58,307 nucleotides of DNA from an uncultured Saprospiraceae bacterium (GTDB taxonomy: Bacteria; Bacteroidota; Bacteroidia; Chitinophagales; Saprospiraceae). The position numbers and the translations under genes are program-made. Each line of letters opens with the position of its first letter. The first letter of the stretch is position 1. Shown here one piece after another: positions 11,886 to 41,030 of this stretch. The notes under the pieces were generated by a model, which saw only the letters and a list, made by a program, of their open reading frames with translations, ran no database searches and was not told the origin of the DNA. The stretch covers positions 1 to 58,307 of the forward strand of contig CALJOK010000078.1 in NCBI GenBank assembly GCA_937981555.1, read 5' to 3'.

Positions 11886-14800
11886 ATGAAAAAGACCTTC
11901 ACCTTATTTCTTCTCTTTTTACTTTTAATTTCTTCAAACCTATCCGCACAAGTAGATTATAAAATTCTACTTGCTTCAGGAGAAATTACACCAACGGAAA
12001 ACATTCAAGATTTTGTTCAAAAGTCAACCATTGCCGACAAAGAAAACTATGATGGTTACTATTATCAGATTGTTCAATTTTATGACGTTCCAACTAATGC
12101 GCAACATCAACAGATTGCTCAAAGTGGAATTCAACTTTTAGAATATTTGCCACATCGAGCTTACATTGCTGCGATTCCTGTAACCATGAATCCCGAAAAA
12201 CTGGTTAATTTAAATGTACGATCAGTCTTGGATATTTCTCTAAACTTTAAAGTGGCAAATAATTTAAATCAAGTTTCTTTTCCTAACTGGGCGATCCAAA
12301 AGGAAAGGGTAGAAGTGATGATAAAATATTATAAAAATATTAAACAAAGTGATTTGTTGCCACATTTGGTGGATGATGGAATAGAGGTGAAAAGTTTTAA
12401 CGGATATAATAATTTTTTTAGAGCAACTATCGAAAAAAATAAAATAGCAGAAATTGCTGCACTTGCTTATGTTTCTTATTTGGAATTGGGCCCAGCCCCA
12501 GCGGTAGCAGATGATGACTTGGGGCGGTCGCTTCACCGATCTAATATGATTGATGCATCTTATACAGGTGGTCGATCTTATACAGGAGTAGGTGTAGGTG
12601 TTTTAGTTAGAGATGATGGAGGCCTTGGACCTCATATTGATTATCATGGTCGGTTGACTCAAGAGTTTATTACTAATGGTCCAGGCGGAACTCATGGTGA
12701 TGGAGTGGCTGGACTCTTGGCAGGTGCGGGAAACTTTAATCCAATGAATCGAGGAATGGCTGCAGGTGCTGATATACATGCTTTGGACTATCAGGCCGAT
12801 CATTTAGATTCTACGATGCATTTATTTTTTAATGAAGGGGTGATTGTCACTAACTCTTCTTACTCGAATGGATGTAATGGTGGCTATACGACGATTACAG
12901 AAACAGTTGATCAACAAATTTTTAATAACCCAACTTTGCTACATGTTTTTTCTGCTGGAAATTCTAACAATAGTGATTGCGGATATGGAGCAGGTGACCA
13001 ATGGGGAAATGTTACGGGTGGACATAAGATTGGGAAAAATGTAATCGCTACTGCGAACTTAAATGCAGATGCAACTTTGGTCGCTTCAAGTAGTCGTGGT
13101 CCTGCAAGTGATGGACGAATTAAACCAGACATTTCTGCCAATGGCCGGAATCAAGTTTCGACTGATCCTAATAATCAATATAGTCCGTTTGGTGGAACTT
13201 CTGCAGCTGCGCCATGTATTGCAGGAGTAACTGCTCAATTGCATGATGCACACCGACAATTGAATGGAGGAGTAACTGCGGAGTCTGCTTTGTTGAAAGC
13301 TGTCCTTTTGAATTCTGCGAATGATCTTGGAAATATTGGCCCTGATTTCAAATATGGATGGGGACATGTGAATGCACTTCGAGCAGTTGAGACTTTAGAA
13401 GAAGGACGATACTTTTCAGCATCAGTAGATCCTGGAAGTACAAATACTCATGACTTAATTATTCCTTCTGAGGTACTACAAGCTAAAGTAATGATCTATT
13501 GGAAAGACCAGGAAGGTTCAACTTCAGCAGCTATTGCATTGGTTAATAATTTAGATGCTAGAGTTTTAGATCCTTCGGGAAATATTAATCAACCTTGGAT
13601 TTTAGATCCTACGCCTGACCCAGTTACTTTAGATTTACCTGCCACTACTGGTATCGATAATTTAAATAATGTAGAGCAAATTGCAATGGATAATCCTGCG
13701 GCAGGAACTTATACTATTGAAGTAACAGGAACAGAATTGCCTTTTGGAACGCATGAATATTATGTGATCTATGAATTTTTGACAGAAGATATCAAATTGA
13801 CTTATCCTATTGGAGGAGAAGGTTTTGTACCAGGAGAAACGGAGAGAATTCATTGGGATGCTTTTGGTGAATCAGGAGGATTTGATTTAGAATATTCCAT
13901 AGATGGAGGAGGTACATGGACTACTATCGGGACAGCAAGTGCTGATGCTCGAATGTTTAACTGGACTGTTCCGAATGACTTTACTGGAGAGGCAAAAGTA
14001 AGAATAACTAGAGGTTCTTTAGAAAGTATTAGTGAGGCAAATTTTTCTATTTCCACACTTCCAACTGGACTCGAAGTTTTAACAGTATGCCCTGATTATA
14101 TTGAATTGGGTTGGAATGAAATGACTAATGCTACGAGTTACCAGATTTTTGCTTTAGGCGAAAAATATATGGACTCGGTAGGAGTGACTAGTGATTTGAC
14201 TATCCAAATTCCAATTGCTAATCCAGCGGATATTAATAATGAATGGTATTTTGCGATTGCTGCACTTGGACCGAATGCATTGGAATCTCGTCGAACGATT
14301 GCCCTATATTATCCAGGAGGTTTCTTTAATTGTCAATTACAAAATGATATAAATCTTACTTCAATTACTAATATTGGAACTGGAAATATTTTTTCTTGTG
14401 ATCCTACATTTAGTGTTCCATTGACTATTTCTATTATGAATACAGGATTGACAGATGCAACTGACTTCGAAGCAGCTTACCAAGTGGATGGTCAGGTAGC
14501 AGTTCAAGAAACGGTTGTAGGAACTTTGATTGCAGGAGAGAGTATGGAATATACTTTTACTCAAGCAATTGATTTAGCAGCAAGTGGAAATTATGATTTG
14601 ACTTCTTGGGTTTCCGTAGTTGGAGATAATTTCTTACCTAATGATACAGCATCGATTAATTTTGAATTGAATTTATTGCAACAGTCTGCAGCACAATTAG
14701 ATGTCGTTGAAACTTTTGAAAGTGGAGTTTTTCCTCCAGCACTTTGGACTTCTATCAATGATGATAATGACGAAGGATGGGAAGAAATAACGGTGACTCA

Positions 14801-31298: not shown

Positions 31299-32885
31299 AT
31301 GAAGAATCTTCTTTTCCTATTTTGTCTTTGTGTTTTATTTTCTTGCGAAGAAAAAATTCCAGCGACACCAAAAGACCTTACCAAAGAATTTTTAATTCCA
31401 AAACCAGATTCACTTTTGGCCACAGGGAGTTCATTTCAATTAACCAATGAAACTCAAATCGTTATTGAAAATGGAAATGAAGAACTTAATAAGGTAGGAC
31501 AATATTTATCCAAAAAATTAAGTCCAGCAACTGGGTTTAATTTTCCAATTAATTTTTCTGATAAAAAAAATACACCAAACGCTATCCATTTTTTTATTTC
31601 CAAAAATAAAAAACAACTGGGAGAGGAGGGATATGAATTGACGGTTGATGAAAATTATATCCAGCTAGAAGGTAATACTCCAGCTGGAATTTTTAGAGGC
31701 GTGCAAACCTTGTTACAATTACTTCCTGAAACGATCGTAAAGAAAACTTTGCAATCGGAATCATGGGAAATTGCAAGTGGGAATATTTTTGATTTTCCAA
31801 ACTACGAATACCGAGGAGCTATGATTGATGTGAGTCGTCATTTCTTTGGCGTTGAAAAGGTGAAAGAATATGTTGATCATTTGGCGAGATATAAAATGAA
31901 TTATTTGCACATTCATTTGACTGATGATCAAGGATGGAGAATTGAAATTAAGAAATGGCCAAACCTGACTGCGCATGGAGGAAGCACCCAAGTGGGCGGC
32001 GGTAAAGGTGGTTTTTTTACACAAGAAGATTATAAAGAAATTGTAAAATATGCAGCGGATAGATTTATCACAATCGTTCCTGAGATAGATTTGCCAGGAC
32101 ATACCAATGCAGCTTTAGCTTCTTATGCAGAACTAAACTGTGATGGAAAAGCGACAAAACTTTACACAGGAATGGAAGTTGGTTTTAGTACGCTTTGTAC
32201 TCGAAATGAAAATACTTATGAGTTTGTCGATGATGTAATCAAAGAGTTAGTGGAGATGACACCTGGTCCATATATTCACATCGGTGGCGATGAATCTCAC
32301 TCAACTAAAAAGGAAGATTATATTTATTTCGTTGATCGAGTACAGGATATCGTAAAAAAACATGGCAAGCAAATGATGGGCTGGGATGATATCACCGCAG
32401 GAAGTTTAACATCAAATGCTGTTGCTCAACATTGGGCAAAAAAAGAAAATGCCAAAAAGGCTGTAGGACAAAATGTAAAAATAGTGATGTCGCCAGCTAG
32501 CAAAGCTTATCTAGATATGAAGTATGATTCGACTACGACCTTGGGATTAAATTGGGCTGGATTTATTGAAGTGGATACTGGTTATATTTGGAATCCAGCA
32601 GCTTTAATTAATGGAGTTAAAAGAGAAAATATTCTAGGGGTGGAATGTCCTCTTTGGACAGAGACGGTAACTGATTTGGATGAGTTGGAATATCTCGTTT
32701 TTCCGAGATTATTAGGTTATGCAGAGATTGGTTGGACGAAGCAAGAAGATAGAAATTGGGAAGATTATAAAGTTAGATTAGGTAATCATCAAGCTAGATT
32801 GGAAGCTTTGGGGATTAATTATTATCCTTCGAAATTAGTGCCTTGGACCAAGCCGACAGAGAAAGGAGTCAAGTTAAAAAATTAA
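31299..32885 (+). CDS. Beta-N-acetylhexosaminidase (GH20) lipoprotein
   Basis: 528 residues from the ATG at 31299; this start gives a proper lipoprotein signal peptide with C16 (LCVLFSC), whereas the frame is open 52 codons further upstream without one. An N-terminal GH20b domain (about 30-165) precedes the GH20 barrel (YRGAMIDVSRHFF, MNYLHIHLTDDQGWRIEI, VPEIDLPGH). The catalytic pair of substrate-assisted hydrolysis is D331-E332 in HIGGDESH; the substrate-binding Trp residues in GLNWAGF and PLWTETV are present. It should release terminal GlcNAc or GalNAc from chitin fragments, glycans or muropeptides, anchored in a membrane. Confidence 0.95.
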   Translation: MKNLLFLFCLCVLFSCEEKIPATPKDLTKEFLIPKPDSLLATGSSFQLTNETQIVIENGNEELNKVGQYLSKKLSPATGFNFPINFSDKKNTPNAIHFFISKNKKQLGEEGYELTVDENYIQLEGNTPAGIFRGVQTLLQLLPETIVKKTLQSESWEIASGNIFDFPNYEYRGAMIDVSRHFFGVEKVKEYVDHLARYKMNYLHIHLTDDQGWRIEIKKWPNLTAHGGSTQVGGGKGGFFTQEDYKEIVKYAADRFITIVPEIDLPGHTNAALASYAELNCDGKATKLYTGMEVGFSTLCTRNENTYEFVDDVIKELVEMTPGPYIHIGGDESHSTKKEDYIYFVDRVQDIVKKHGKQMMGWDDITAGSLTSNAVAQHWAKKENAKKAVGQNVKIVMSPASKAYLDMKYDSTTTLGLNWAGFIEVDTGYIWNPAALINGVKRENILGVECPLWTETVTDLDELEYLVFPRLLGYAEIGWTKQEDRNWEDYKVRLGNHQARLEALGINYYPSKLVPWTKPTEKGVKLKN

Positions 32886-32915
32886 GAAAGAAGCTACCTA
32901 ATCCGCATTGGTTTA

Positions 32916-33024
32916 ATCCAATATATTTAAACGCAGAGGTGGAGAGTCGCAGAGAATTTTTCGAAGAAAAATTAAAAAAATGCTGCGCCTCTCTGTCTCT
33001 GCGTTTAAATATTTATGGAATCAT
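32916..33024. repeat. GCAGAG-type imperfect inverted-repeat element
   Basis: ATTTAAACGCAGAG (32925-32938) is the perfect complement of 32997-33010; the complementarity continues inwards and outwards with mismatches to give arms of about 46 nt around a short AT-rich loop. Elements with CGCAGAG repeats at their ends are common non-coding hairpins in Bacteroidota genomes (from memory). It lies 30 bp after the hexosaminidase stop and may form a terminator-like structure. Confidence 0.65.
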
Positions 33025-33315
33025 ATTAATGTTGAATATTTACGATTTCCCTATATAATTCTTTTTAGGAACTACAATTTTTTATAAAATATCTCAATTA
33101 ATCTCCCCCAAATACTCAATTAAGAGACCTTTAATTACTAAATAACCACGATTAAGTACCCATTAAGTGGTTTTTAAGATTCCAACCTTTTCTTTGCTAC
33201 CAGTTCATGTGACCTTATATTTATCAATTGAAAATGTATGGACGAGTACATTGCCTTGCTTCGGCAAATACATGAATCGGTTATTAGAAAGTTCTTACAA
33301 AAAAAAAGTTTTGTT

Positions 33316-33906
33316 ATGATTTTAAAAGAAATTAATCCAAATGCAGCAGTACTTCCTTTAGCAATTACTCCTACACTTAATGGAACAATCACCATTAAAG
33401 AAGCAGAAGAATTAGTTGATGGTGATCACGTATTTGAAACAAGTGCAGTAGCAGATGCCAGAGGAAATTCGCGAACCAATATGTCAATTCAGCAGGCACA
33501 ACAATTTGTTGTTGAGTTTGAATGGAAATGGCAAAGTGGTCGTTTTTTAGATGATTCTTTGACAGGAGGAGCATGGAGAGTCGCAGCTTTATTTGAAGCG
33601 ATGGGTTCAACTACTGCTAACCCTGGTGCTAATCCTTCTAGTGATTTTAATATCACAGGACAAACTGCTTATGGTTCTCGAATAAACCCTGTTGCTCTTC
33701 CCTCTCCAAATGGACCAGTTGACAGAGATTACTTGGTTACCTTACAAATCAATCCTGATCCTACCACTAATCCAATTGCACCTGGACTTTATAGAGTGAG
33801 TGCAAGAGCACAATATTTTGATGGAGGAGGAAAAGCAGCTGCCTTATCTTTCTTTGAAGATTTAGGAATGATTCACGTTTACTCAGATGGTTCTTCTTTC
33901 GTCTAG
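33316..33906 (+). CDS. Member of an undescribed repeated-domain family (copy A)
   Basis: 196 residues from the ATG at 33316; the frame is open 26 codons further up, but the copies at 35279 and 35809 begin at equivalent short leaders, so the inner start is preferred. No signal peptide or membrane helix. The body holds FEWKWQSGRFLDDSL-TGGAWRV and APGLYRVSARAQYFD ... SFFEDLGMIHVY, which align directly with the proteins at 35279 (DWNVYGEF, GGSW, PGTYRVAASMQYID, FEDIGFVNVY) and 35809. Predicted all-beta, perhaps Ig-like. First of four closely spaced genes. Function unknown. Confidence 0.8.
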   Translation: MILKEINPNAAVLPLAITPTLNGTITIKEAEELVDGDHVFETSAVADARGNSRTNMSIQQAQQFVVEFEWKWQSGRFLDDSLTGGAWRVAALFEAMGSTTANPGANPSSDFNITGQTAYGSRINPVALPSPNGPVDRDYLVTLQINPDPTTNPIAPGLYRVSARAQYFDGGGKAAALSFFEDLGMIHVYSDGSSFV

Positions 33907-33988
33907 TACTTATTATTTTAAGTAAGTGAAAGGGAGGAGTAATTGACTCCTCCCTTTTCAAATTTCTTAACGCTAAAAAACCATCCAA

Positions 33989-35191
33989 ATGAAAATGTCC
34001 CTAGATAATTATGATTTCACTCGAAAGTCAGAATCTGGATTAGCAGGTTTTGAAAATTTCTTTAACTCCGACAATAGTAAATTTTATTTTCATTTTAATG
34101 ATGAAGATGGGAATGCATTATTATATAGTCAAAGTTATGCTACGGAAAAGGGAAGAGATAAAGGAATAAAATCTTTGACTGCTAACCTCGTAAACTCATC
34201 TCGATATGAAGTAAAAACTGATGAGAAATTTTATTTCGTTATTCGTGCAGGCAATCATCAAGAAATAGCTCGTAGCAGATTCTTTGATGAAAAAGAGAAA
34301 ATGTTAGATGCAATGGATTTCGCAAAAACATTTTATGCTGGCGAAGAATCAGAAGAAATTTCTACTTCTAAAGCAATGCTACAATCATCAAAAATAAAAA
34401 AAGAAGAAGTGCCCTCCTCTAAGCAGGCATTTAGAATTGATATTTATAATGTAGGAAATGGAGATGAGATAAATGGGAAAATAGAACACCTACTCACTAA
34501 GGATAAAATGACTTTTTCTAATTTAGATCCTAATGAATTAGTTCAGTTTATACACACCAAAATAGCAGAAGCTAAGACAGCTAATGAATTACCTCAAGAT
34601 AGGATTGAATTGGTAAGCTCTACTGCTCCTGATGTTTTATCTGATGAGGTAAGCTTTGCAGATTTTGAGGATCGAGTAAATGAGGAAAGTTTAGAACTTG
34701 AGAATCCATTGGAAATAGCATCACTTACTTTGGAGGATGCTATACCCGCAGCACCTCAACCATCTCCTTCAGATCCTTTCTTATTTCATGAGGATGATGT
34801 TAGGATGAAAATTTTACAAGGAGGACATGTAGTGAAGAATAATATAAACAACGCGAACCCAAATTCGCCAACAAATATCACACTTGAGTTAAACCCTCTT
34901 TTAACCAATAATGATATTCGAATTGAAGCTCATTATAATTTAAAATTACTAGCAACAGGTGATATTGTTTTTGAATCAAATTTTATAAGAGATCTTACCA
35001 ACCAAAATAAAGTGGTCATCCCCTTAGATTTTAGTACAGTTGAAAATGGAACCTACGCTATAAATATTTTTGCAAAAATAGGACGGGATTATGAAAGTTT
35101 ACCTTTCCAAATAACAATGAGAAAAAGTCAAATATTGACAGTATATCAATTTACTAAAGTTGTATCTAAACAATTAGTGACTAGTTTTTAA
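33989..35191 (+). CDS. Two DUF1508-like repeats fused to a beta-rich C-terminus
   Basis: 400 residues, no signal peptide. Residues about 30-115 contain two copies of a YegP/DUF1508-like strand pattern (FYFHFNDEDGNALLYSQSY; FYFVIRAGNHQEIARSRFF). An acidic, probably disordered linker (about 116-260, with PAAPQPSPSDP) leads to a beta-sandwich-like C-terminal domain (about 270-385, NDIRIEAHYNLKLLATGDIVF). DUF1508 proteins are small, of unknown role. The gene lies 83 bp after copy A and 87 bp before copy B, inside the four-gene cluster, which suggests it acts with the repeated-domain proteins. Confidence 0.8.
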   Translation: MKMSLDNYDFTRKSESGLAGFENFFNSDNSKFYFHFNDEDGNALLYSQSYATEKGRDKGIKSLTANLVNSSRYEVKTDEKFYFVIRAGNHQEIARSRFFDEKEKMLDAMDFAKTFYAGEESEEISTSKAMLQSSKIKKEEVPSSKQAFRIDIYNVGNGDEINGKIEHLLTKDKMTFSNLDPNELVQFIHTKIAEAKTANELPQDRIELVSSTAPDVLSDEVSFADFEDRVNEESLELENPLEIASLTLEDAIPAAPQPSPSDPFLFHEDDVRMKILQGGHVVKNNINNANPNSPTNITLELNPLLTNNDIRIEAHYNLKLLATGDIVFESNFIRDLTNQNKVVIPLDFSTVENGTYAINIFAKIGRDYESLPFQITMRKSQILTVYQFTKVVSKQLVTSF

Positions 35192-35278
35192 AATTTAGAT
35201 GAATTTAGTAATGGACTGTTTTACTCCCAAGGTGACACCAATTTATTTTTGGGAAGGACAAATAAAATAAAAATAATC

Positions 35279-35776
35279 ATGGCTAATAATATTGAAATTT
35301 CAAGTAATACACTTCCTTTCGGTCTTCAGTTAACTGGCACATTTAAAATTGTAGAAGGCACTTCCACCGCAGGTAGTGAAAATGTTTTAGACACATCAGA
35401 TCCGAATGATACTAAGTCTAATTTTTTAATTCAAAAAGATCAAGATTTTACCATCCGATGTGATTGGAATGTCTATGGTGAATTTGCTCCATTTTTGTCA
35501 GGAGGGAGTTGGCGATGTCAATCTTATTTTGATCAAATAGGAAAAGGGGAATTTATACCTCAAATAAATCCGGTGGCTCCAGTAATTGATCAAGGAATAG
35601 ATGGCGGGCATTACCAGCAAGATTTAACGATCCCTCACGGCACTATGGAACCTGGAACTTATCGAGTAGCTGCTTCCATGCAATATATCGACTCGGATGG
35701 AAAACCTGCTCCAATTACAGTATTTGAAGATATCGGATTTGTAAATGTTTATGATGAGAATTCAAGTTTTATTTAA
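35279..35776 (+). CDS. Member of the same undescribed repeated-domain family (copy B)
   Basis: 165 residues starting MANNIEISSN at 35279; the frame extends 10 codons upstream but with no features. No export signal. Clear paralogue of the gene at 33316: CDWNVYGEFAPFLSGGSWRC, then EPGTYRVAASMQYIDSDGK and ITVFEDIGFVNVYDENSSFI (copy A ends FEDLGMIHVYSDGSSFV). The stop is followed after 32 bp by the third family member, so these are almost certainly one transcript. Confidence 0.8.
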   Translation: MANNIEISSNTLPFGLQLTGTFKIVEGTSTAGSENVLDTSDPNDTKSNFLIQKDQDFTIRCDWNVYGEFAPFLSGGSWRCQSYFDQIGKGEFIPQINPVAPVIDQGIDGGHYQQDLTIPHGTMEPGTYRVAASMQYIDSDGKPAPITVFEDIGFVNVYDENSSFI

Positions 35777-35808
35777 ATTATTTCATTAATAACCTTAATA
35801 AAAAACCA

Positions 35809-36837
35809 ATGAAAAGTTTTGAAGTCAACCTTGCCCAAAATGTGTTAAGTATAGTTGGGAGTGCCAATATAATTCATGGAGAACCTAATTTAGGAAATCA
35901 TGAATTAAGTCGAAAAGGATTAACTGTAGGTGCCCAAAATCTATTTTATCCTATCATGTTAGATCGGTCGCTACCCAATGATTTATTTAAAGTAGAAAAA
36001 AGAGGAGACAATAATGCTGTAATAAAATTTAGGCAATTACATGTTTTTGATATAGATGGAAAAGAAGTATTTACCTCATCGGGCAATCAATATAATAACG
36101 ATTGGAACGGAGTAGGAAATGGTGGATTTACACTTCCTGATGGAACTTATTTATTCGAATTAATTACCAACTTAGGAAATAAAGAAAAAGGGGCAATTCG
36201 ATTAATGGGAATAAGTGGAAATAGTTTTGTTACGGATAATGACAATTCTTGGGTCGTATTTAAATGGAAAATCAGAGGTAGCTTTTTGTCTCTGCTTAAT
36301 AATGGATCATGGGAAACGCATGTTTTGGTAGAAGATGAGAATGGGAATTCTGTAACTAATTTAGCAGGTACGACCATTCAAGTTGGAGCAAAACAAGATG
36401 GAGTATATTCTAATTTTATTGAATTGGATCAAACTAATTTAAGTCCAGGTAGATATAAAATCTCTGCAGGTTTGCAATGGACTGATTCAAAAGGAGTATT
36501 AACTTCCGTTAATCATTTTATTGATCTTGGTGAGATCATTCTAAAAGGAAAGACACCTGTGGTAACCATCCCATCTAGTCTTAAGTTTTCACCTGACGGA
36601 GATGGCGTTAATGATACCCTTTTTATTCCAGGCATAGATAATTTCCCTAATAATGAAGTAATTATTTATAATAGATGGGGGAATGAGGTTTTTTCACGAG
36701 CTGGTTATTCCAATTCTAACCCTTGGGATGGAAGTATTGATGGTAGTCTTACTGATACTTCTGATGGGGGATATTTCTATCATATAGAAGATGGAGAAGG
36801 AGAAAAACATTTAGGATATTTGATGCTGGATAGATAA
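35809..36837 (+). CDS. FlgD-like + repeated domain + CHU_C protein without a signal peptide (copy C)
   Basis: 342 residues. Residues about 1-135 include an FlgD/CHU_C-type module (QLHVFDIDGKEVFTSSG ... LPDGTYLFELI). About 145-245 is the family domain shared with the genes at 33316 and 35279 (VFKWKIRGSFLSLLNNGSWE, SPGRYKISAGLQWTD, NHFIDLGEIIL). About 250-342 is a CHU_C (gliding-motility C-terminal, T9SS type B) domain: FSPDGDGVNDTLFIPG, IYNRWGNEVF, NPWDGS, YFYHIEDGEGEKHLGYLML. Such a tail normally requires Sec export, but the N-terminus (MKSFEVNLAQNVLSIVGSAN) is not a signal peptide and the upstream frame gives none. Last gene of the cluster; a perfect terminator follows. Confidence 0.85.
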   Translation: MKSFEVNLAQNVLSIVGSANIIHGEPNLGNHELSRKGLTVGAQNLFYPIMLDRSLPNDLFKVEKRGDNNAVIKFRQLHVFDIDGKEVFTSSGNQYNNDWNGVGNGGFTLPDGTYLFELITNLGNKEKGAIRLMGISGNSFVTDNDNSWVVFKWKIRGSFLSLLNNGSWETHVLVEDENGNSVTNLAGTTIQVGAKQDGVYSNFIELDQTNLSPGRYKISAGLQWTDSKGVLTSVNHFIDLGEIILKGKTPVVTIPSSLKFSPDGDGVNDTLFIPGIDNFPNNEVIIYNRWGNEVFSRAGYSNSNPWDGSIDGSLTDTSDGGYFYHIEDGEGEKHLGYLMLDR

Positions 36838-36850
36838 TAAGTGACTATGG

Positions 36851-36887
36851 CAAAACTGAATATCGAATACTTCGATATTCAGTTTTG
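36851..36887 (+). terminator. Perfect 17-bp hairpin ending the four-gene cluster
   Basis: CAAAACTGAATATCGAA (36851-36867) pairs perfectly with 36871-36887 around a 3-nt loop, 14 bp after the stop of the CHU_C gene. The closing arm includes TTTT. Confidence 0.8.
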
Positions 36888-36911
36888 TACAAAGAAAAGA
36901 TGTTCTAAAGT

Positions 36912-37130
36912 CTAATAAAGATCGTCCGATGGATTTCTTTTTATAGTCGGAACATGTGATCCGCTGTGCAGCGCCATTCGATTTCCTTTAGTAATCATTT
37001 TCCCAGTTTTCCAATTGAAATGTTGTGTATAACTGCACTCTGCACATTTGTAAACAATCCAATTGCCTCTAGTGTAACCTTCGCAAATGTGGGTTTCCAT
37101 TGGTGGAAATAAATTTTCTTGGTGTTTCAT
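36912..37130 (-). CDS. Small zinc-ribbon-like hypothetical protein
   Basis: 72 residues with C16, C29 and C32 (ICEGYTRGNW, YKCAECSYTQHFNW), suggesting a small metal site, and a polar tail with HSGSHVP. The cysteine and aromatic pattern looks conserved rather than random. It is convergent with the four-gene cluster. Family not recognised. Confidence 0.6.
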   Translation of the reverse strand: MKHQENLFPPMETHICEGYTRGNWIVYKCAECSYTQHFNWKTGKMITKGNRMALHSGSHVPTIKRNPSDDLY

Positions 37131-37797
37131 AAAAAATATTTGTATTTATAAATGCCTCGATTGTATCTCCATTCACAAACAGACGATGGATTTGGCAAGC
37201 GAGGTTTTTAATTTAATTTTTTTGAAAAATAGGAGCAACCTATGATTTTCAAAAATCATGATTTTTGGCTAAGAGGGATAATTTTCTAGTTTAGACTTGG
37301 TTGTAGGATTCTTTATCGAGGATGGGGTAGGCAATAATTACCTAGTTTTAAAACGAAAATTTAAATAAAAAAATTATTTCTGCAAAGATAGTTTTTTTAT
37401 TAATGTATTAAAAAAAAATGTAATGTTATTTGGTAAATTTTTTCCTTTTTCCTTTTATTTTAACAATTAGAATGATAAATTTGGATAACCTAAAAGATTA
37501 ACAAACAGACTTTTTTTTTTGAGAAAATAAAACAAACAGATCCACTTAGACAGGTCAGATTTTTTTTATTAAAAATTAATTACTGACTGTCATCAACCCA
37601 ATCAAATTAAAATAAAGTAATTTTTATTTTCCTTCCTTATTTTCGACTGAATACTAAAAAATTAAATATTTCTGGCCAGAAGGGAATTCTGTACCAAACT
37701 AGTCAAGTAATTTTATTTGAGTAATAGTTTGTCATTATTCATCTAGTGATTTAATATGCTACCTCATGGGTAGGATTAGTCACGTATTTATAACCAA
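37131..37797. other. AT-rich intergenic region
   Basis: 667 bp without a convincing gene between divergent genes. It contains a perfect 16-bp palindrome AAAAATCATGATTTTT (37251-37266) and long A/T runs around 37370-37640 suggestive of bent DNA. Promoters of both flanking genes must lie here; no clear TAnnTTTG box was found. Confidence 0.45.
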
Positions 37798-39075
37798 ATG
37801 CGAACACCCAAAATTCTATTTTTCGGCCATTTAAATAGTCAGGTAGGAGATGTTTTTAGAAACATTAATAGTTTCTTTGAAGTAACTGCGCTGACTCGAG
37901 TACCACATACCAGATCTCAATTGCGAAAGTATGGCAAGTATTCCTTAGCAATTATTTTGCATGATCCACCCAAAGCAAATGCTTTTTTAAAGCTTAAAGA
38001 GTTAAGGGCTATTCTGCCCGAAATTCCAATTATTTTCCTAGCATTAAATCCTTCTCGGGAAGAGATTGTATCGGCAGTAAGAATGGGGGTAGCGGATATT
38101 TTTATCCTACCTGTTCCGCCGGACGAATTGATTTCTGGAATTTATAAAAATCAAAAAAAGGAAAAACGATTTTGGCAAAAAGGTATTTTCAATCAGTTGA
38201 AATCTAGCTTACAACGGTTTACCGGAAACTTGAAAAAAATAGATAGCACTTCATTTTCTCAATCTCAGAATAATTCGTTGAAGTCTTCCATCTTGATTCC
38301 GATCCCTACGATTCCCGAAACGAAAAATATTATCAAGGTTCAAATGTTGGGTGAATTTCAAGTGAGTTGGAATGGCACTATTTTAAAAAAAATGAAAAGC
38401 AAAAAAGCAATTGCTCTTTTTGCCTTCTTATTATTGAATAGAAAAAAAAGAATTCATAAGCATATTTTGATGAATACTTTTTGGAGAGATTCTTCGAGAG
38501 ATAGTGCAAAAAATTGTATGCATGTGATGATTCATTCTATTCGAAAATATCTGAATGAAATGATGCCCGGTTATGATTTTATTATTTACCAAGATGATTG
38601 TTACAGCATCCATCCTGAATTTGAAATCAGATTAGATACAGATACATTTACTGAAAATTGGAGGCGAGGAAATTATTTAGAAAAATCAAAAGTACCTGCT
38701 GAATCAATCGAATTATTTCAAAAATCATTTTCACTCTACCAAAATGATTTTTTATTTGAGATTCACGAAGAGAGTTGGGTGGAAGCGGAACGAGATAATT
38801 ATAAAGAAACTTTTCTAGTTATTTTGGATCGCTTGAGTGCTCACTTTTATAGAAATGGAAATTATTCTTTGGCGATTAATTTATGTAAAGATGCGCTAAA
38901 AAAGGATCCATGTTTGGAAGAAATTCATCGACGGTTGATGCGTTGTTATCAGAATGTAGGAATGCGAGATAAAGCGATTCGGCAGTTTCATAAATGCGAA
39001 CAAACATTAGAAAGAGAATTAGATATGAAGCCTTCTGAAAAAACAATTGGATTGCTCTATGAAATTAAGAGTTGA
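37798..39075 (+). CDS. SARP/AfsR-like regulator with a degenerate receiver domain
   Basis: 425 residues. Residues about 1-115 have the response-regulator fold (KILFFGHLNSQVG, LAIILHDPPKANAF, IPIIFLALNPSREEIVSAVRMGVADIFILPVPPDEL), but the acidic pocket is reduced and the conserved Lys is replaced by Leu before Pro, so phosphorylation is doubtful. About 178-275 is a winged helix of OmpR/SARP type (VQMLGEFQVSWNG, HKHILMNTFWRDSS) and about 280-425 the bacterial transcriptional activation (TPR-like) domain (VEAERDNYKETFLVILDRL, AIRQFHKCEQTLERELDMKPS). SARP proteins activate neighbouring biosynthetic or accessory genes; the adjacent four-gene cluster is a plausible but unproven target. Confidence 0.85.
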   Translation: MRTPKILFFGHLNSQVGDVFRNINSFFEVTALTRVPHTRSQLRKYGKYSLAIILHDPPKANAFLKLKELRAILPEIPIIFLALNPSREEIVSAVRMGVADIFILPVPPDELISGIYKNQKKEKRFWQKGIFNQLKSSLQRFTGNLKKIDSTSFSQSQNNSLKSSILIPIPTIPETKNIIKVQMLGEFQVSWNGTILKKMKSKKAIALFAFLLLNRKKRIHKHILMNTFWRDSSRDSAKNCMHVMIHSIRKYLNEMMPGYDFIIYQDDCYSIHPEFEIRLDTDTFTENWRRGNYLEKSKVPAESIELFQKSFSLYQNDFLFEIHEESWVEAERDNYKETFLVILDRLSAHFYRNGNYSLAINLCKDALKKDPCLEEIHRRLMRCYQNVGMRDKAIRQFHKCEQTLERELDMKPSEKTIGLLYEIKS

Positions 39076-39112
39076 TTTATTGACCTCCATTTCATCATAA
39101 TATACCCTTGTT

Positions 39113-39155
39113 TAAAACGCCTAATCATTTGATTATCAGATGATTAGTCGTTTTT
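39113..39155. terminator. Bidirectional terminator between convergent genes
   Basis: CTAATCAT (39121-39128) pairs with ATGATTAG (39140-39147), extended by AAAACG and CGTTTTT outer segments with one bulge; it lies between the SARP-like gene (stop 39075) and the monooxygenase (stop 39160). Confidence 0.75.
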
Positions 39156-39159
39156 ATTA

Positions 39160-40296
39160 TTAAAAATTAAGTTCAAATATCTTAGCACTTTGCTTTTCTC
39201 CTAAAGAATCTGGCGTCATTCGCATGATAGAATTTCGAATCTTTCTTCCAAAATAATTTTCCAATTGAGCAATCTTTCCAACTTGCCAACTTTGATTGAT
39301 GACTCCATTTGCTTTTTTAATTCTTAATTTTTGAAAATTAGAAAATGCCTTTTTGATGTCTTTTTCTTTTTCCAAACATAAACTTAACGCCAATGCATCT
39401 TCAATGGATTGACACGCACCTTGCCCCATATTTGGAGTGGTCGCATGAGCAGCATCTCCGATCAAACAAACATTATTGGTGTGCCATTTTTTGATCGGCT
39501 TTAGATCATTAATTTCGTTGACAATTATTTTGTCGGTAGGAGTGGAGTGGATAATTTTTGAAATTATTGGATCATAATCGGAAAACATTTTCCCCAAATC
39601 AGCCTCTTGAAATTCTGTTCTAAAATTGTTTTTATAATTAGCCAATGCAAACCAGTAAACTTCTCCATGCGCCAAAGGAACAATTCCAAATCGAGTTCCC
39701 TTGCCCCAACTTTCATTTATCTCATGTTGAAATCTTTCGGGTAACTTCATTTTTGTAATTCCTCTCCAGCATACTTGATGTGCATTTCTAATGGCTGTTT
39801 TTGGAAAAAAATGCTTTCGAACAACCGAGTGGATTCCATCAGCACCAATCAAAATATCTGTTTGATGAGAAGTGCCGTCCTCAAAATATATTTGGATTCT
39901 ATCGTCAATTTCGATGAGTTGTTTTACTCGTTTTCCTAGATGTAAATGTCTTGTTGGGATTTTTTTTAATAAAATTTCTTGGAGGGTTCCTCGATGGATC
40001 GCAGCATAATGAGTGCCTAATTTTTTCTCAAAAGATTTAAGATTTATTTTGGTTAAGGTATTTAATTTTTCGTCCACTAGTTTTAAGGAGGAAATATGAT
40101 TCGAATTTTTATAAATTATTTCAGACAAACCTAATCGTTGGAAAACTTGCATAGCATTATTTGCCAAAACGATTCCTGCGCCCATTTTTTTCATCTCAGG
40201 AAATGATTCGAATATTTCAACTTCGAATCCTTTTTGCCTTAAAGCTATGGCTGCGGTAAGTCCGCCAATTCCTGCGCCAACGATGGTGAATTTCAT
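39160..40296 (-). CDS. FAD-dependent aromatic monooxygenase
   Basis: 378 residues, typical of class A flavoprotein hydroxylases. FAD-binding GAGIGG near residue 8-13 with IALRQKGFEVEIFE; the DG motif in DILIGADGIHSVVR (about residue 150); the GD motif in CLIGDAAHATTPNMGQGACQ (about residue 278-297). Related enzymes hydroxylate salicylate, hydroxybenzoates or larger polycyclic substrates; some inactivate tetracyclines. The substrate is not determinable here. Divergent from a TetR regulator with two palindromes between them, so induction by an aromatic ligand is likely. Confidence 0.9.
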   Translation of the reverse strand: MKFTIVGAGIGGLTAAIALRQKGFEVEIFESFPEMKKMGAGIVLANNAMQVFQRLGLSEIIYKNSNHISSLKLVDEKLNTLTKINLKSFEKKLGTHYAAIHRGTLQEILLKKIPTRHLHLGKRVKQLIEIDDRIQIYFEDGTSHQTDILIGADGIHSVVRKHFFPKTAIRNAHQVCWRGITKMKLPERFQHEINESWGKGTRFGIVPLAHGEVYWFALANYKNNFRTEFQEADLGKMFSDYDPIISKIIHSTPTDKIIVNEINDLKPIKKWHTNNVCLIGDAAHATTPNMGQGACQSIEDALALSLCLEKEKDIKKAFSNFQKLRIKKANGVINQSWQVGKIAQLENYFGRKIRNSIMRMTPDSLGEKQSAKIFELNF

Positions 40297-40320
40297 ATTA
40301 AGTATTTTTAGGAAGTAGAT

Positions 40321-40390
40321 ATTAGTACAATTGCACTAATTTTAGACAAACCTACAAATAATATTTTTATAGTACAACTGTACTATAAAA
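40321..40390. promoter_or_regulatory. Twin operator palindromes of the monooxygenase/TetR promoter
   Basis: Site 1 (40321-40340) is a 20-bp palindrome with one mismatch (ATTAGTACAATTGCACTAAT). Site 2 has perfect 11-bp arms TTTTATAGTAC (40365-40375) and GTACTATAAAA (40380-40390) around AACT. Their centres are 47 bp apart. Minus-strand -7 box TAGGTTTG (plus 40347-40354) for the monooxygenase lies between them. Confidence 0.75.
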
Positions 40391-40394
40391 AAAT

Positions 40395-40402
40395 TATATT
40401 TG
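40395..40402 (+). promoter_or_regulatory. -7 box of the TetR gene, almost touching the start codon
   Basis: TATATTTG matches TAnnTTTG and ends only 4 bp before the ATG at 40407, implying a leaderless or near-leaderless message. Confidence 0.5.
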
Positions 40403-40406
40403 CAAC

Positions 40407-41030
40407 ATGAGTACTACTAAGAAAAGAATACTAAATGCTTCTCGAAAGTTATTTAATCAACAAGGTTTATCAGCTGTCAGCCAAAGAACGATTGCTACTC
40501 ATTTAAAAATTAGTCCAGGAAACTTGACGTATCATTTTAAGAAAAGAAGTGAAATAATTGAAGGTTTATACTTTGAGTTAGTTGAAAAAATGGATCACGA
40601 TTTTTTGAATGTTGAAATGGAAAAAGGATTGTTTTTTGGATTATATCAACTGACTCAAAAGTCGATGGAAAATCTTTTTGAGTATCGTTTTATGATGTTG
40701 GATTTTATTCAAGTCATGCGCGAATTCCCAATCATCAAAAAACATTATTTAAAGTTGATTACTCAACGGGAAGAGCAAATGCAAATGTTTATTCAAATGA
40801 TGATTCAAAGTGGTTTGATGCGAAAAGAAGAAATCAAAAATGAATACCAAAATCTGACTCGACGAATGATGATTTTAGGTGATTTTTGGTTAGCTTCGGC
40901 AGAGATAAATCGAGAGAAAATGGATAAAAGACAGATTGAGAAATATTTAGAAATTACGAGTCAAGTTATTTATCCGTACCTCACAGCCAAGGGAAAAAGA
41001 GAATATCGAAAAGTAGAGAGAGACTCATAA
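40407..41030 (+). CDS. TetR-family regulator
   Basis: 207 residues. Helix-turn-helix at about 5-50 (KKRILNASRKLFNQQGLSAVSQRTIATHLKISPGNLTYHFKKRSEII), then a helical C-terminal domain of the type found with a YbiH-like TetR_C (LMMLDFIQVMREFPIIKKHY). The gene is divergent from the monooxygenase and probably represses it and itself through the palindromes at 40321-40390. Ligand unknown. Confidence 0.92.
   Translation: MSTTKKRILNASRKLFNQQGLSAVSQRTIATHLKISPGNLTYHFKKRSEIIEGLYFELVEKMDHDFLNVEMEKGLFFGLYQLTQKSMENLFEYRFMMLDFIQVMREFPIIKKHYLKLITQREEQMQMFIQMMIQSGLMRKEEIKNEYQNLTRRMMILGDFWLASAEINREKMDKRQIEKYLEITSQVIYPYLTAKGKREYRKVERDS

What the first reader, a model, noticed from the sequence alone, without database searches (positions are those of the whole stretch)
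33316..36837. Four-gene cluster built on an undescribed repeated beta-domain
Three of four consecutive plus-strand genes (33316, 35279, 35809) share one domain: an aromatic segment (EWKW/DWNV/KWKI), a turn with G-[GS]-x-W, then PGxYRVxAxxQxxD and a closing F-x-D-[IL]-G strand. The fourth, at 33989, has two DUF1508-like repeats plus a beta-rich end. Gaps are 82, 87 and 32 bp and a perfect terminator closes the set, so it reads as one operon. No member has a signal peptide, and I recognise no known system with this make-up. A SARP-like regulator lies 1 kb downstream. Candidate functions (surface filament, injection-device component, intracellular scaffold) are guesses.
Basis: partly seen in the sequence, partly recalled or inferred. 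Interest (0 to 1): 0.85.

Follow-up and report, generated by a model that had tools for sequence, protein, structure and literature searches.

The report
Undescribed four-part bacterial gene module
The four genes belong to a recurring, apparently undescribed set of bacterial genes that seems to make much of a small non-exported protein under its own switch; what the protein does is unknown, but the set is now defined well enough to be tested.

Summary
All four genes (33316-33906, 33989-35191, 35279-35776, 35809-36837) carry one beta-sandwich domain (BETA); the 'beta-rich end' of gene 2 is a divergent copy. Genes 1 and 3 match no Pfam, NCBIfam, PHROG or PADLOC family. Two more genes belong to the set: an overlooked small zinc-ribbon-like gene (ZNR, 36912-37100, minus) and the SARP-like regulator (37798-39075). 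BETA, the gene-2 type (MID), ZNR and SARP recur together in Saprospiraceae and Calditrichota/KSB1 records, also when loci are found through ZNR alone (17 of 31). ZNR faces the nearest module gene tail to tail in 34 of 36 loci. The set is accessory: a congener has 613 bp where the window has 8.2 kb. BETA is the only gene type of the set with codon adaptation (above MID in 18 of 22 loci), and a strong RNA hairpin usually follows it, so it is probably made in excess. Best reading: a regulated soluble cytosolic protein assembly or binder, BETA major, MID minor. Injection device, phage origin and T9SS display are disfavoured. Function is inferred, not shown.

The parts
33316..33906 (+). gene 1: BETA protein, 196 aa (ATG 33238 possible), likely the abundant one
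   Evidence: codon adaptation 0.723 against a ribosomal mean of 0.70 and a maximum of 0.667 in 30 other window genes; z 3.9, second to the gene at 11886 with 5.7
33928..33958 (+). terminator/attenuator-like hairpin between gene 1 and gene 2
   Evidence: 13-pair stem, 5-nt loop (which found 6 such sites in the region against 2.5 in shuffles); the gap folds at -25 kcal/mol, z -5.3; strong folding recurs in this gap in other loci
33989..35191 (+). gene 2 (MID): DUF1508 x2, a conserved middle domain, low-confidence linker, C-terminal BETA-like domain
35279..35776 (+). gene 3: second BETA protein, 165 aa
   Evidence: AlphaFold2 beta sandwich, mean pLDDT 80
35809..36837 (+). gene 4: CHU_C-like domain, BETA domain, C-terminal CHU_C type IX domain; no signal peptide seen
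36851..36887 (.). perfect inverted repeat (probable terminator) between convergent gene 4 and ZNR
   Evidence: not listed by the consensus scan
36912..37100 (-). ZNR: small zinc-ribbon-like protein, 62 aa from ATG 37100 (72 aa from ATG 37130)
   Evidence: found by comparing gaps across loci; invariant H-x-C, C-x2-C and a distal H in 19 sequences
37131..37797 (.). 667 bp between divergent ZNR and SARP, likely regulatory
   Evidence: only short direct repeats; no function shown
37798..39075 (+). SARP-like regulator: degenerate receiver-like domain, winged helix, BTAD
   Evidence: belongs to a long class of BTAD proteins found at modules

Best explanation
The window holds one copy of a self-contained accessory gene module. 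Shown by comparison: four components (BETA, MID, ZNR, SARP) recur together in Saprospiraceae and in Calditrichota/KSB1 records; export-like segments are absent from BETA and rare in the rest; BETA is the codon-adapted gene type and is usually followed by a strong RNA fold. Inferred: SARP, whose receiver-like domain has mostly lost its phosphorylation residues and so probably answers to a ligand or protein partner, activates the genes; BETA is made in excess as a soluble cytosolic beta-sandwich protein; MID, which carries its own BETA-like domain on a conserved middle domain and a variable head (DUF1508 repeats or coiled coil), is the minor partner that nucleates, caps or tethers a BETA assembly; ZNR, transcribed toward the structural genes and away from SARP, tunes SARP or the assembly. 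In the window the set has grown by two extra BETA genes, one fused to CHU_C domains. Whether the assembly is a filament, cage or ligand-binding depot is not known.
For: Co-occurrence: of 37 BETA-found loci, 27 have MID, 27 SARP and 20 ZNR (not counted: a second BETA of L015 that scored with the MID model and a regulator of L050 that scored with the SARP model; several loci are cut by contig ends; the models were seeded from some of these loci). Entry through ZNR alone: 48 pattern matches, 42 ZNR by profile, 31 after removing 11 records of loci already held, 17 of the 31 with BETA and/or MID on the fetched piece, 7 of these 17 with SARP too. ZNR in 13 of 18 BETA-positive and 0 of 17 BETA-negative family genomes, 13 of its 15 places being at modules (part of the profile comes from these genomes; the 18 were chosen by me out of 30). 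In the same 35 genomes 31 BTAD matches reach E 1e-7: 19 at modules, 12 not; all 18 with a frame of 372 aa or more are at modules, the unlinked ones have 116-295. ZNR convergent with the nearest BETA or MID in 34 of 36 loci. Homology of BETA and the MID C-terminus. Codon adaptation: first BETA above MID in 18 of 22 (p 7e-5) and above SARP in 19 of 23 (p 2e-4); z >= 2 in 12 of 25 first BETA, 0 of 62 MID, SARP and ZNR genes, 25 of 137 background genes. Fold z <= -3 in 19 of 26 BETA-MID gaps of 40-300 bp against 38 of 128 control gaps, p 1e-5. No export-like segment in 70 BETA frames.
Against: Nothing shows oligomerisation; no complex was modelled. Codon adaptation is not universal: 13 of 25 first BETA genes are below z 2, G306 (-3.3) and one G435 copy (-3.2) clearly negative, gene 3 and the C9 and C17 copies not significant. 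The folds could be message-stabilising elements, 30% of control gaps fold as well, and related loci are not independent. BETA occurs without MID (L013), without SARP (L049, L050), and with a sigma-54 regulator (L015), so no partner is strictly needed; BETA and MID are not always in tandem (L014, L052, L060, L078). 14 of 31 ZNR loci show no BETA or MID by profile; in L088 and L111 the expected side lies off the piece, but the rest mean that ZNR has other uses. Four other module frames pass the hydropathy limit (1 of 50 MID, 1 of 45 SARP, 2 of 43 ZNR). Ig-like sandwiches are so general that the fold gives no function.
Confidence: 0.38

Rival explanations
1. BETA is a cytosolic ligand- or carbohydrate-binding protein (lectin-like or Wzt_C-like) that accumulates in the cell, with MID as adaptor; the module is a binding or sensing device, not a polymer.
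For: Wzt C-terminal domains recur among Foldseek matches (2r5o, 5hno, 5hnp; TM up to 0.54); Pfam gives Wzt_C a weak E 0.034 for the BETA part of gene 4; small size, signs of high expression, no export signal.
Against: TM scores are low with rmsd above 6 A, and MspA rim, arrestin, NPC2 and velvet domains match about as well; the same part of gene 4 gives FlgD, not sugar-binding, models a better though sub-threshold score (E 1e-4, 22 bits against a cut-off of 230). No binding site was examined.
Confidence: 0.25
2. The module is a biotic-conflict (defence) device: SARP or BETA senses infection, and abundant BETA or MID acts on the invader or the cell.
For: Patchy presence (30 of 248 family genomes), variable site, two or three divergent copies in some genomes; one copy near an nSTAND1 ATPase gene (L050); a Pycsar AGS-C Ig-like domain among low-ranked fold matches.
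Against: No PADLOC match for the six window proteins; no enzymatic or membrane domain recognised in them; no recurrent extra neighbour seen by eye in the gene maps of 36 loci (neighbours were not family-searched except a few).
Confidence: 0.15
3. The genes are surface proteins secreted by the type IX system, gene 4 being the anchor.
For: Gene 4 has a CHU_C type B sorting domain; some loci have large CHU_C proteins upstream (L047, L048, L052, L069).
Against: No export-like segment in any BETA frame; among the BETA proteins scanned CHU_C is found only in gene 4.
Confidence: 0.07
4. The genes are accessory parts or cargo of an extracellular contractile injection system, whose loci can carry BTAD regulators (PMC8213781).
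For: BTAD is named as an eCIS shell domain in PMC8213781 (passages seen); 14 of 18 BETA-positive genomes have a contractile tube protein, against 8 of 17 negatives.
Against: The window's own genome, with three BETA loci, has no PF06841 tube protein, nor do G316, G379 and G375 (draft genomes, the window's 97% complete); no such gene was recognised by eye beside the modules.
Confidence: 0.03

Closest known systems
YegP / DUF1508 (UPF0339) proteins
   Same: Gene 2 begins with two tandem DUF1508 repeats; it matches YegP 2k8e and SO_3888 2k49 by sequence and fold.
   Different: In gene 2 the conserved core across relatives is a middle domain plus a BETA-like domain; the DUF1508 head is replaced or missing in some.
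SARP / AfsR-type regulators (BTAD)
   Same: Winged helix followed by BTAD.
   Different: N-terminal degenerate receiver-like domain; tied to this module, not to an antibiotic cluster.
CHU_C / T9SS type B substrates (TIGR04131)
   Same: Gene 4 C-terminus passes both curated cut-offs.
   Different: No signal peptide seen; joined to a BETA domain.
Wzt C-terminal domain, FlgD Ig-like and other Ig-like sandwiches
   Same: Similar overall fold by Foldseek for Wzt; sub-threshold Wzt_C and FlgD scores for the BETA part of gene 4.
   Different: No score over a cut-off for the BETA part; low TM.
Major/minor subunit operons with a hairpin after the major-subunit gene (pilins, gas vesicles; recalled, from no call)
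   Same: First gene codon-adapted and followed by a hairpin, second gene carrying a related domain.
   Different: No export signal; no assembly shown.

Membership tests
DUF1508 / YegP | tandem DUF1508 repeats above the Pfam cut-off | tested here: met
   gene 2, 52.6 bits against 22, two stretches; fold match
DUF1508 / YegP | middle domain of gene 2 is a third repeat | tested here: inconclusive
   same strand-helix order in the model but HHalign probability 0.3% or less
SARP | winged helix plus BTAD | tested here: met
   BTAD 78.5 bits against 22.1; Trans_reg_C 22.5 bits, below its cut-off of 26.2
phosphorylated response regulator | conserved phospho-acceptor aspartate and partner residues | tested here: not met
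   read by eye on the alignment: beta-1 acids, beta-3 Asp and beta-5 Lys mostly replaced; a few (L098, L124) keep one or two
T9SS type B substrate | C-terminal CHU_C domain | tested here: met
   gene 4 only
T9SS type B substrate | N-terminal Sec signal peptide | tested here: not met
   no hydrophobic segment in the first 60 residues of gene 4 (hydropathy only)
contractile injection system | genome encodes tube protein PF06841 | tested here: not met
   not found in the window's genome, 97% complete
Wzt_C | match above the Pfam cut-off | tested here: not met
   14.6 bits against 30.4 for gene 4, nothing for genes 1 and 3
anti-phage defence system | protects against phage | not testable with these tools
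   no PADLOC match for the six window proteins
protein-assembly operon | product forms homo-oligomers | not tested
   no complex prediction was run

The most novel reading that the evidence does not exclude
A previously undescribed intracellular protein assembly of Saprospiraceae and Calditrichota, built from an abundant Ig-like subunit with a minor YegP-headed or coiled-coil-headed partner, switched by a dedicated pseudo-receiver SARP and a small zinc protein: a new kind of bacterial cytoplasmic structure or storage body.
Probability: 0.27. Interest if true: 0.85.

Novelty: categorically new. Interest (0 to 1): 0.62.

Why it matters
Three of the four conserved components (BETA, the MID core, ZNR) match no curated family over a cut-off in the libraries searched, yet they occur together in Bacteroidota and Calditrichota/KSB1 records with a nearly constant ZNR orientation and, where the contig allows, usually a dedicated regulator. 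That defines a gene system with a testable core, gives DUF1508 and a class of SARP proteins outside Actinobacteria a biological context, and predicts an abundant cytosolic protein in Saprospiraceae, a family common in wastewater treatment plants (PMC9304909, abstract start seen).

Tried and rejected
Contractile injection system part: disfavoured. Phage or plasmid origin: gene 3 against phages and plasmids gave no match (genes 1, 2 and 4 not tried); the ZNR pattern in viral contigs gave 12 stretches, one clear solo ZNR (L156), one doubtful (L154), no BETA, MID or SARP. Rfam, 32800-39200: nothing at gathering score. Direct repeats in the upstream regions: only short, unconvincing ones. MID-SARP fusion in L051 as evidence of contact: judged more likely an in-frame deletion, since ZNR, the winged helix and part of the BETA-like domain are missing. 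Third DUF1508 repeat in the middle of gene 2: not supported by sequence. Solved structures by sequence: nothing convincing for BETA, best E 0.85. First genome-contig scan with gene 3 alone: no relative. Papers: DUF1508 with Bacteroidetes 0; DUF1508 alone 2, unrelated by title; BTAD terms with Bacteroidetes 1, the eCIS survey; SARP with Saprospiraceae 2, unrelated by title; YegP/UPF0339 21 papers, 20 listed, no function seen in titles and abstract starts; broad listings (10, 10, 8, 8 shown of 115, 75, 19, 817) gave nothing on the module, and two papers that hold 'BTAD' were not opened. Only PMC8213781 was opened, passages only. Only open-licence PMC papers were searched. Two earlier versions of the codon test read some ribosomal references on the wrong strand; one search corrects this and is the one quoted; three loci (L071, L077, L078) were skipped there for too little background. 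One search left out BETA-MID pairs with gaps outside 40-300 bp or on opposite strands and 46 other gaps touching module genes. One search left L062 out of the orientation count (ZNR farther than 1.5 kb).
Full report
Observation. Genes 1 and 3 match nothing in Pfam or NCBIfam at E 1, or in PHROGs or PADLOC at E 0.1. Gene 2 has two DUF1508 repeats; gene 4 ends in CHU_C, a known type IX sorting domain (E 5e-31), and has a second CHU_C/FlgD-like stretch near its start. The middle of gene 4 gives sub-threshold scores with FlgD (E 1e-4) and Wzt_C (0.034), both Ig-like. The shared domain (BETA) is real: pairwise E 6e-9 between genes 1 and 3, 9e-7 between 3 and 4; gene 1 against 4 alone is not significant (0.24). 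A profile comparison shows that the C-terminus of gene 2 is a divergent copy (97%, E 1e-10).

Relatives. A profile of eight BETA rows found matches in 30 of 248 genomes of the same family, own genome included, 19 of 112 genera; across the phylum, with another profile, 2 of 395, the own genome being one. The window's genome has three loci: this one, C17 (L014) and C9 (L013).

The set is larger than four genes. In most loci a DUF1508-bearing gene (MID) and a SARP-like regulator lie beside BETA; order and strand vary. Comparing the gaps revealed a further small gene, ZNR, with invariant H-x-C, C-x2-C and a distal His in 19 sequences. In the window it is 36912-37100 on the minus strand, between gene 4 and SARP. 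Its one Pfam hint is below cut-off (E 0.016). Over the 37 BETA-found loci, those cut by contig ends included: MID 27, SARP 27, ZNR 20.

Independent entry. I searched the 84,980 species genomes of genome contigs with one DNA pattern for ZNR, which misses variants. The 17 include records titled Calditrichaeota, KSB1 and Rhodothermaceae. Of the 14, two (L088, L111) have ZNR at the edge of the piece on the side where the partner would be, L095 has a MID-like neighbour by eye, and seven form a group beside a small HTH gene and mostly a fabG-like gene, so ZNR also has another role. Where ZNR lies within 1.5 kb of MID or BETA (36 loci), it faces the nearest one tail to tail in 34. In 35 family genomes, 18 with and 17 without BETA, ZNR occurs in 13 and 0; 13 of the 15 places are at modules, those of G507:C371 and G464:C15 are not. 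In the same genomes 31 BTAD matches reach E 1e-7; 19 are at modules, and all 18 with frames of 372 aa or more are among them. Weaker matches (E above 1e-5) with long frames elsewhere are probably TPR proteins; this was not tested.

What is conserved in gene 2. Relatives in Calditrichota lack DUF1508 and have what looks like a coiled coil in its place; L079 and L061 have neither. The constant part is a middle domain of about 60 residues plus the BETA-like domain. The model of gene 2 is confident for DUF1508 and most of the middle domain (beta-beta-beta-alpha) and lower elsewhere, mean pLDDT 69. Sequence does not support the middle domain being a third DUF1508 repeat.

Fold of BETA. The model (mean pLDDT 80, 25 rows) is a beta sandwich. 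Foldseek's best matches are MspA rim, Wzt C-terminal domain and arrestin, E 4e-4 to 8e-4, TM 0.39-0.54: a general Ig-like fold, no function implied.

Expression. The gap between genes 1 and 2 folds at -25 kcal/mol (z -5.3) with a 13-pair stem. In 26 loci with BETA then MID on one strand, 40-300 bp apart, the gap folds with z <= -3 in 19, against 38 of 128 control gaps. Gene 1 has codon use as adapted as ribosomal genes (0.723 against a mean of 0.70; z 3.9; in the same test window genes 11886 and 217 reach 5.7 and 3.1). Across 22 loci the first BETA is more adapted than MID in 18, and in 23 loci more than SARP in 19; no MID, SARP or ZNR gene reaches z 2, while 12 of 25 first BETA and 25 of 137 background genes do. 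Loci are related, so p values are optimistic. Gene 3 and the C9 and C17 BETA genes are not individually significant.

Regulator. The receiver-like N-terminus has mostly lost the phosphorylation residues (by eye). Divergent ZNR and SARP share a 667-bp region in the window.

Site. In the congener G298 the aligned blocks of the hexosaminidase upstream and the oxidoreductase downstream are 613 bp apart, against 8,166 bp here; the difference covers the module, a FAD-dependent monooxygenase-like gene and a TetR-like gene. Insertion and deletion cannot be told apart. Gene 1 has no match in the four other genus members searched, nor the profile in the three of them listed.

Function. The best reading is a regulated cytosolic assembly with BETA as major and MID as minor component, 0.38; a soluble binder is the main rival, 0.25. 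Both accept what was shown: co-occurrence, no export signal, signs of high BETA expression. 'Categorically new' refers to the gene system; the folds themselves are known ones.

Noticed in passing
L093, L097, L106, L109, L112, L114, L116: A solo ZNR gene beside a small HTH gene, in most also beside a fabG-like reductase, in Saprospirales-type records, without the module (neighbours named by eye).
   Followed up: partly
L050:4828-9484: A BETA gene near an nSTAND1 ATPase gene, with what look like two response regulators and no SARP; L049 has a similar regulator pair, one confirmed by Pfam.
   Followed up: partly
L013:7806-10318 and L102:4284-7023: A dynamin-like GTPase gene directly upstream of BETA in two genomes, without MID between BETA and ZNR (Pfam for L013; L102 by similarity of sequence).
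   Followed up: no
L015:8350-11411: Two BETA-type genes beside a PilZ/sigma-54 activator instead of SARP, in a distant member of the phylum.
   Followed up: partly
G000:C12:178839-179264: A second class of BTAD protein (frames of about 270-295 aa) occurs in the family away from the module.
   Followed up: no
L113:164-4903: BETA, ZNR, a weakly HHH-like protein and an SLT transglycosylase gene in one cluster.
   Followed up: no
L051:9593-10873: MID and BTAD in one frame, probably an in-frame deletion that removed ZNR and the SARP winged helix.
   Followed up: partly
window 39160-41030: FAD-dependent monooxygenase-like and TetR-like genes (named by eye) lie in the same variable stretch as the module; no close relative of the former (E 1e-40) in the other four genus members.
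   Followed up: partly
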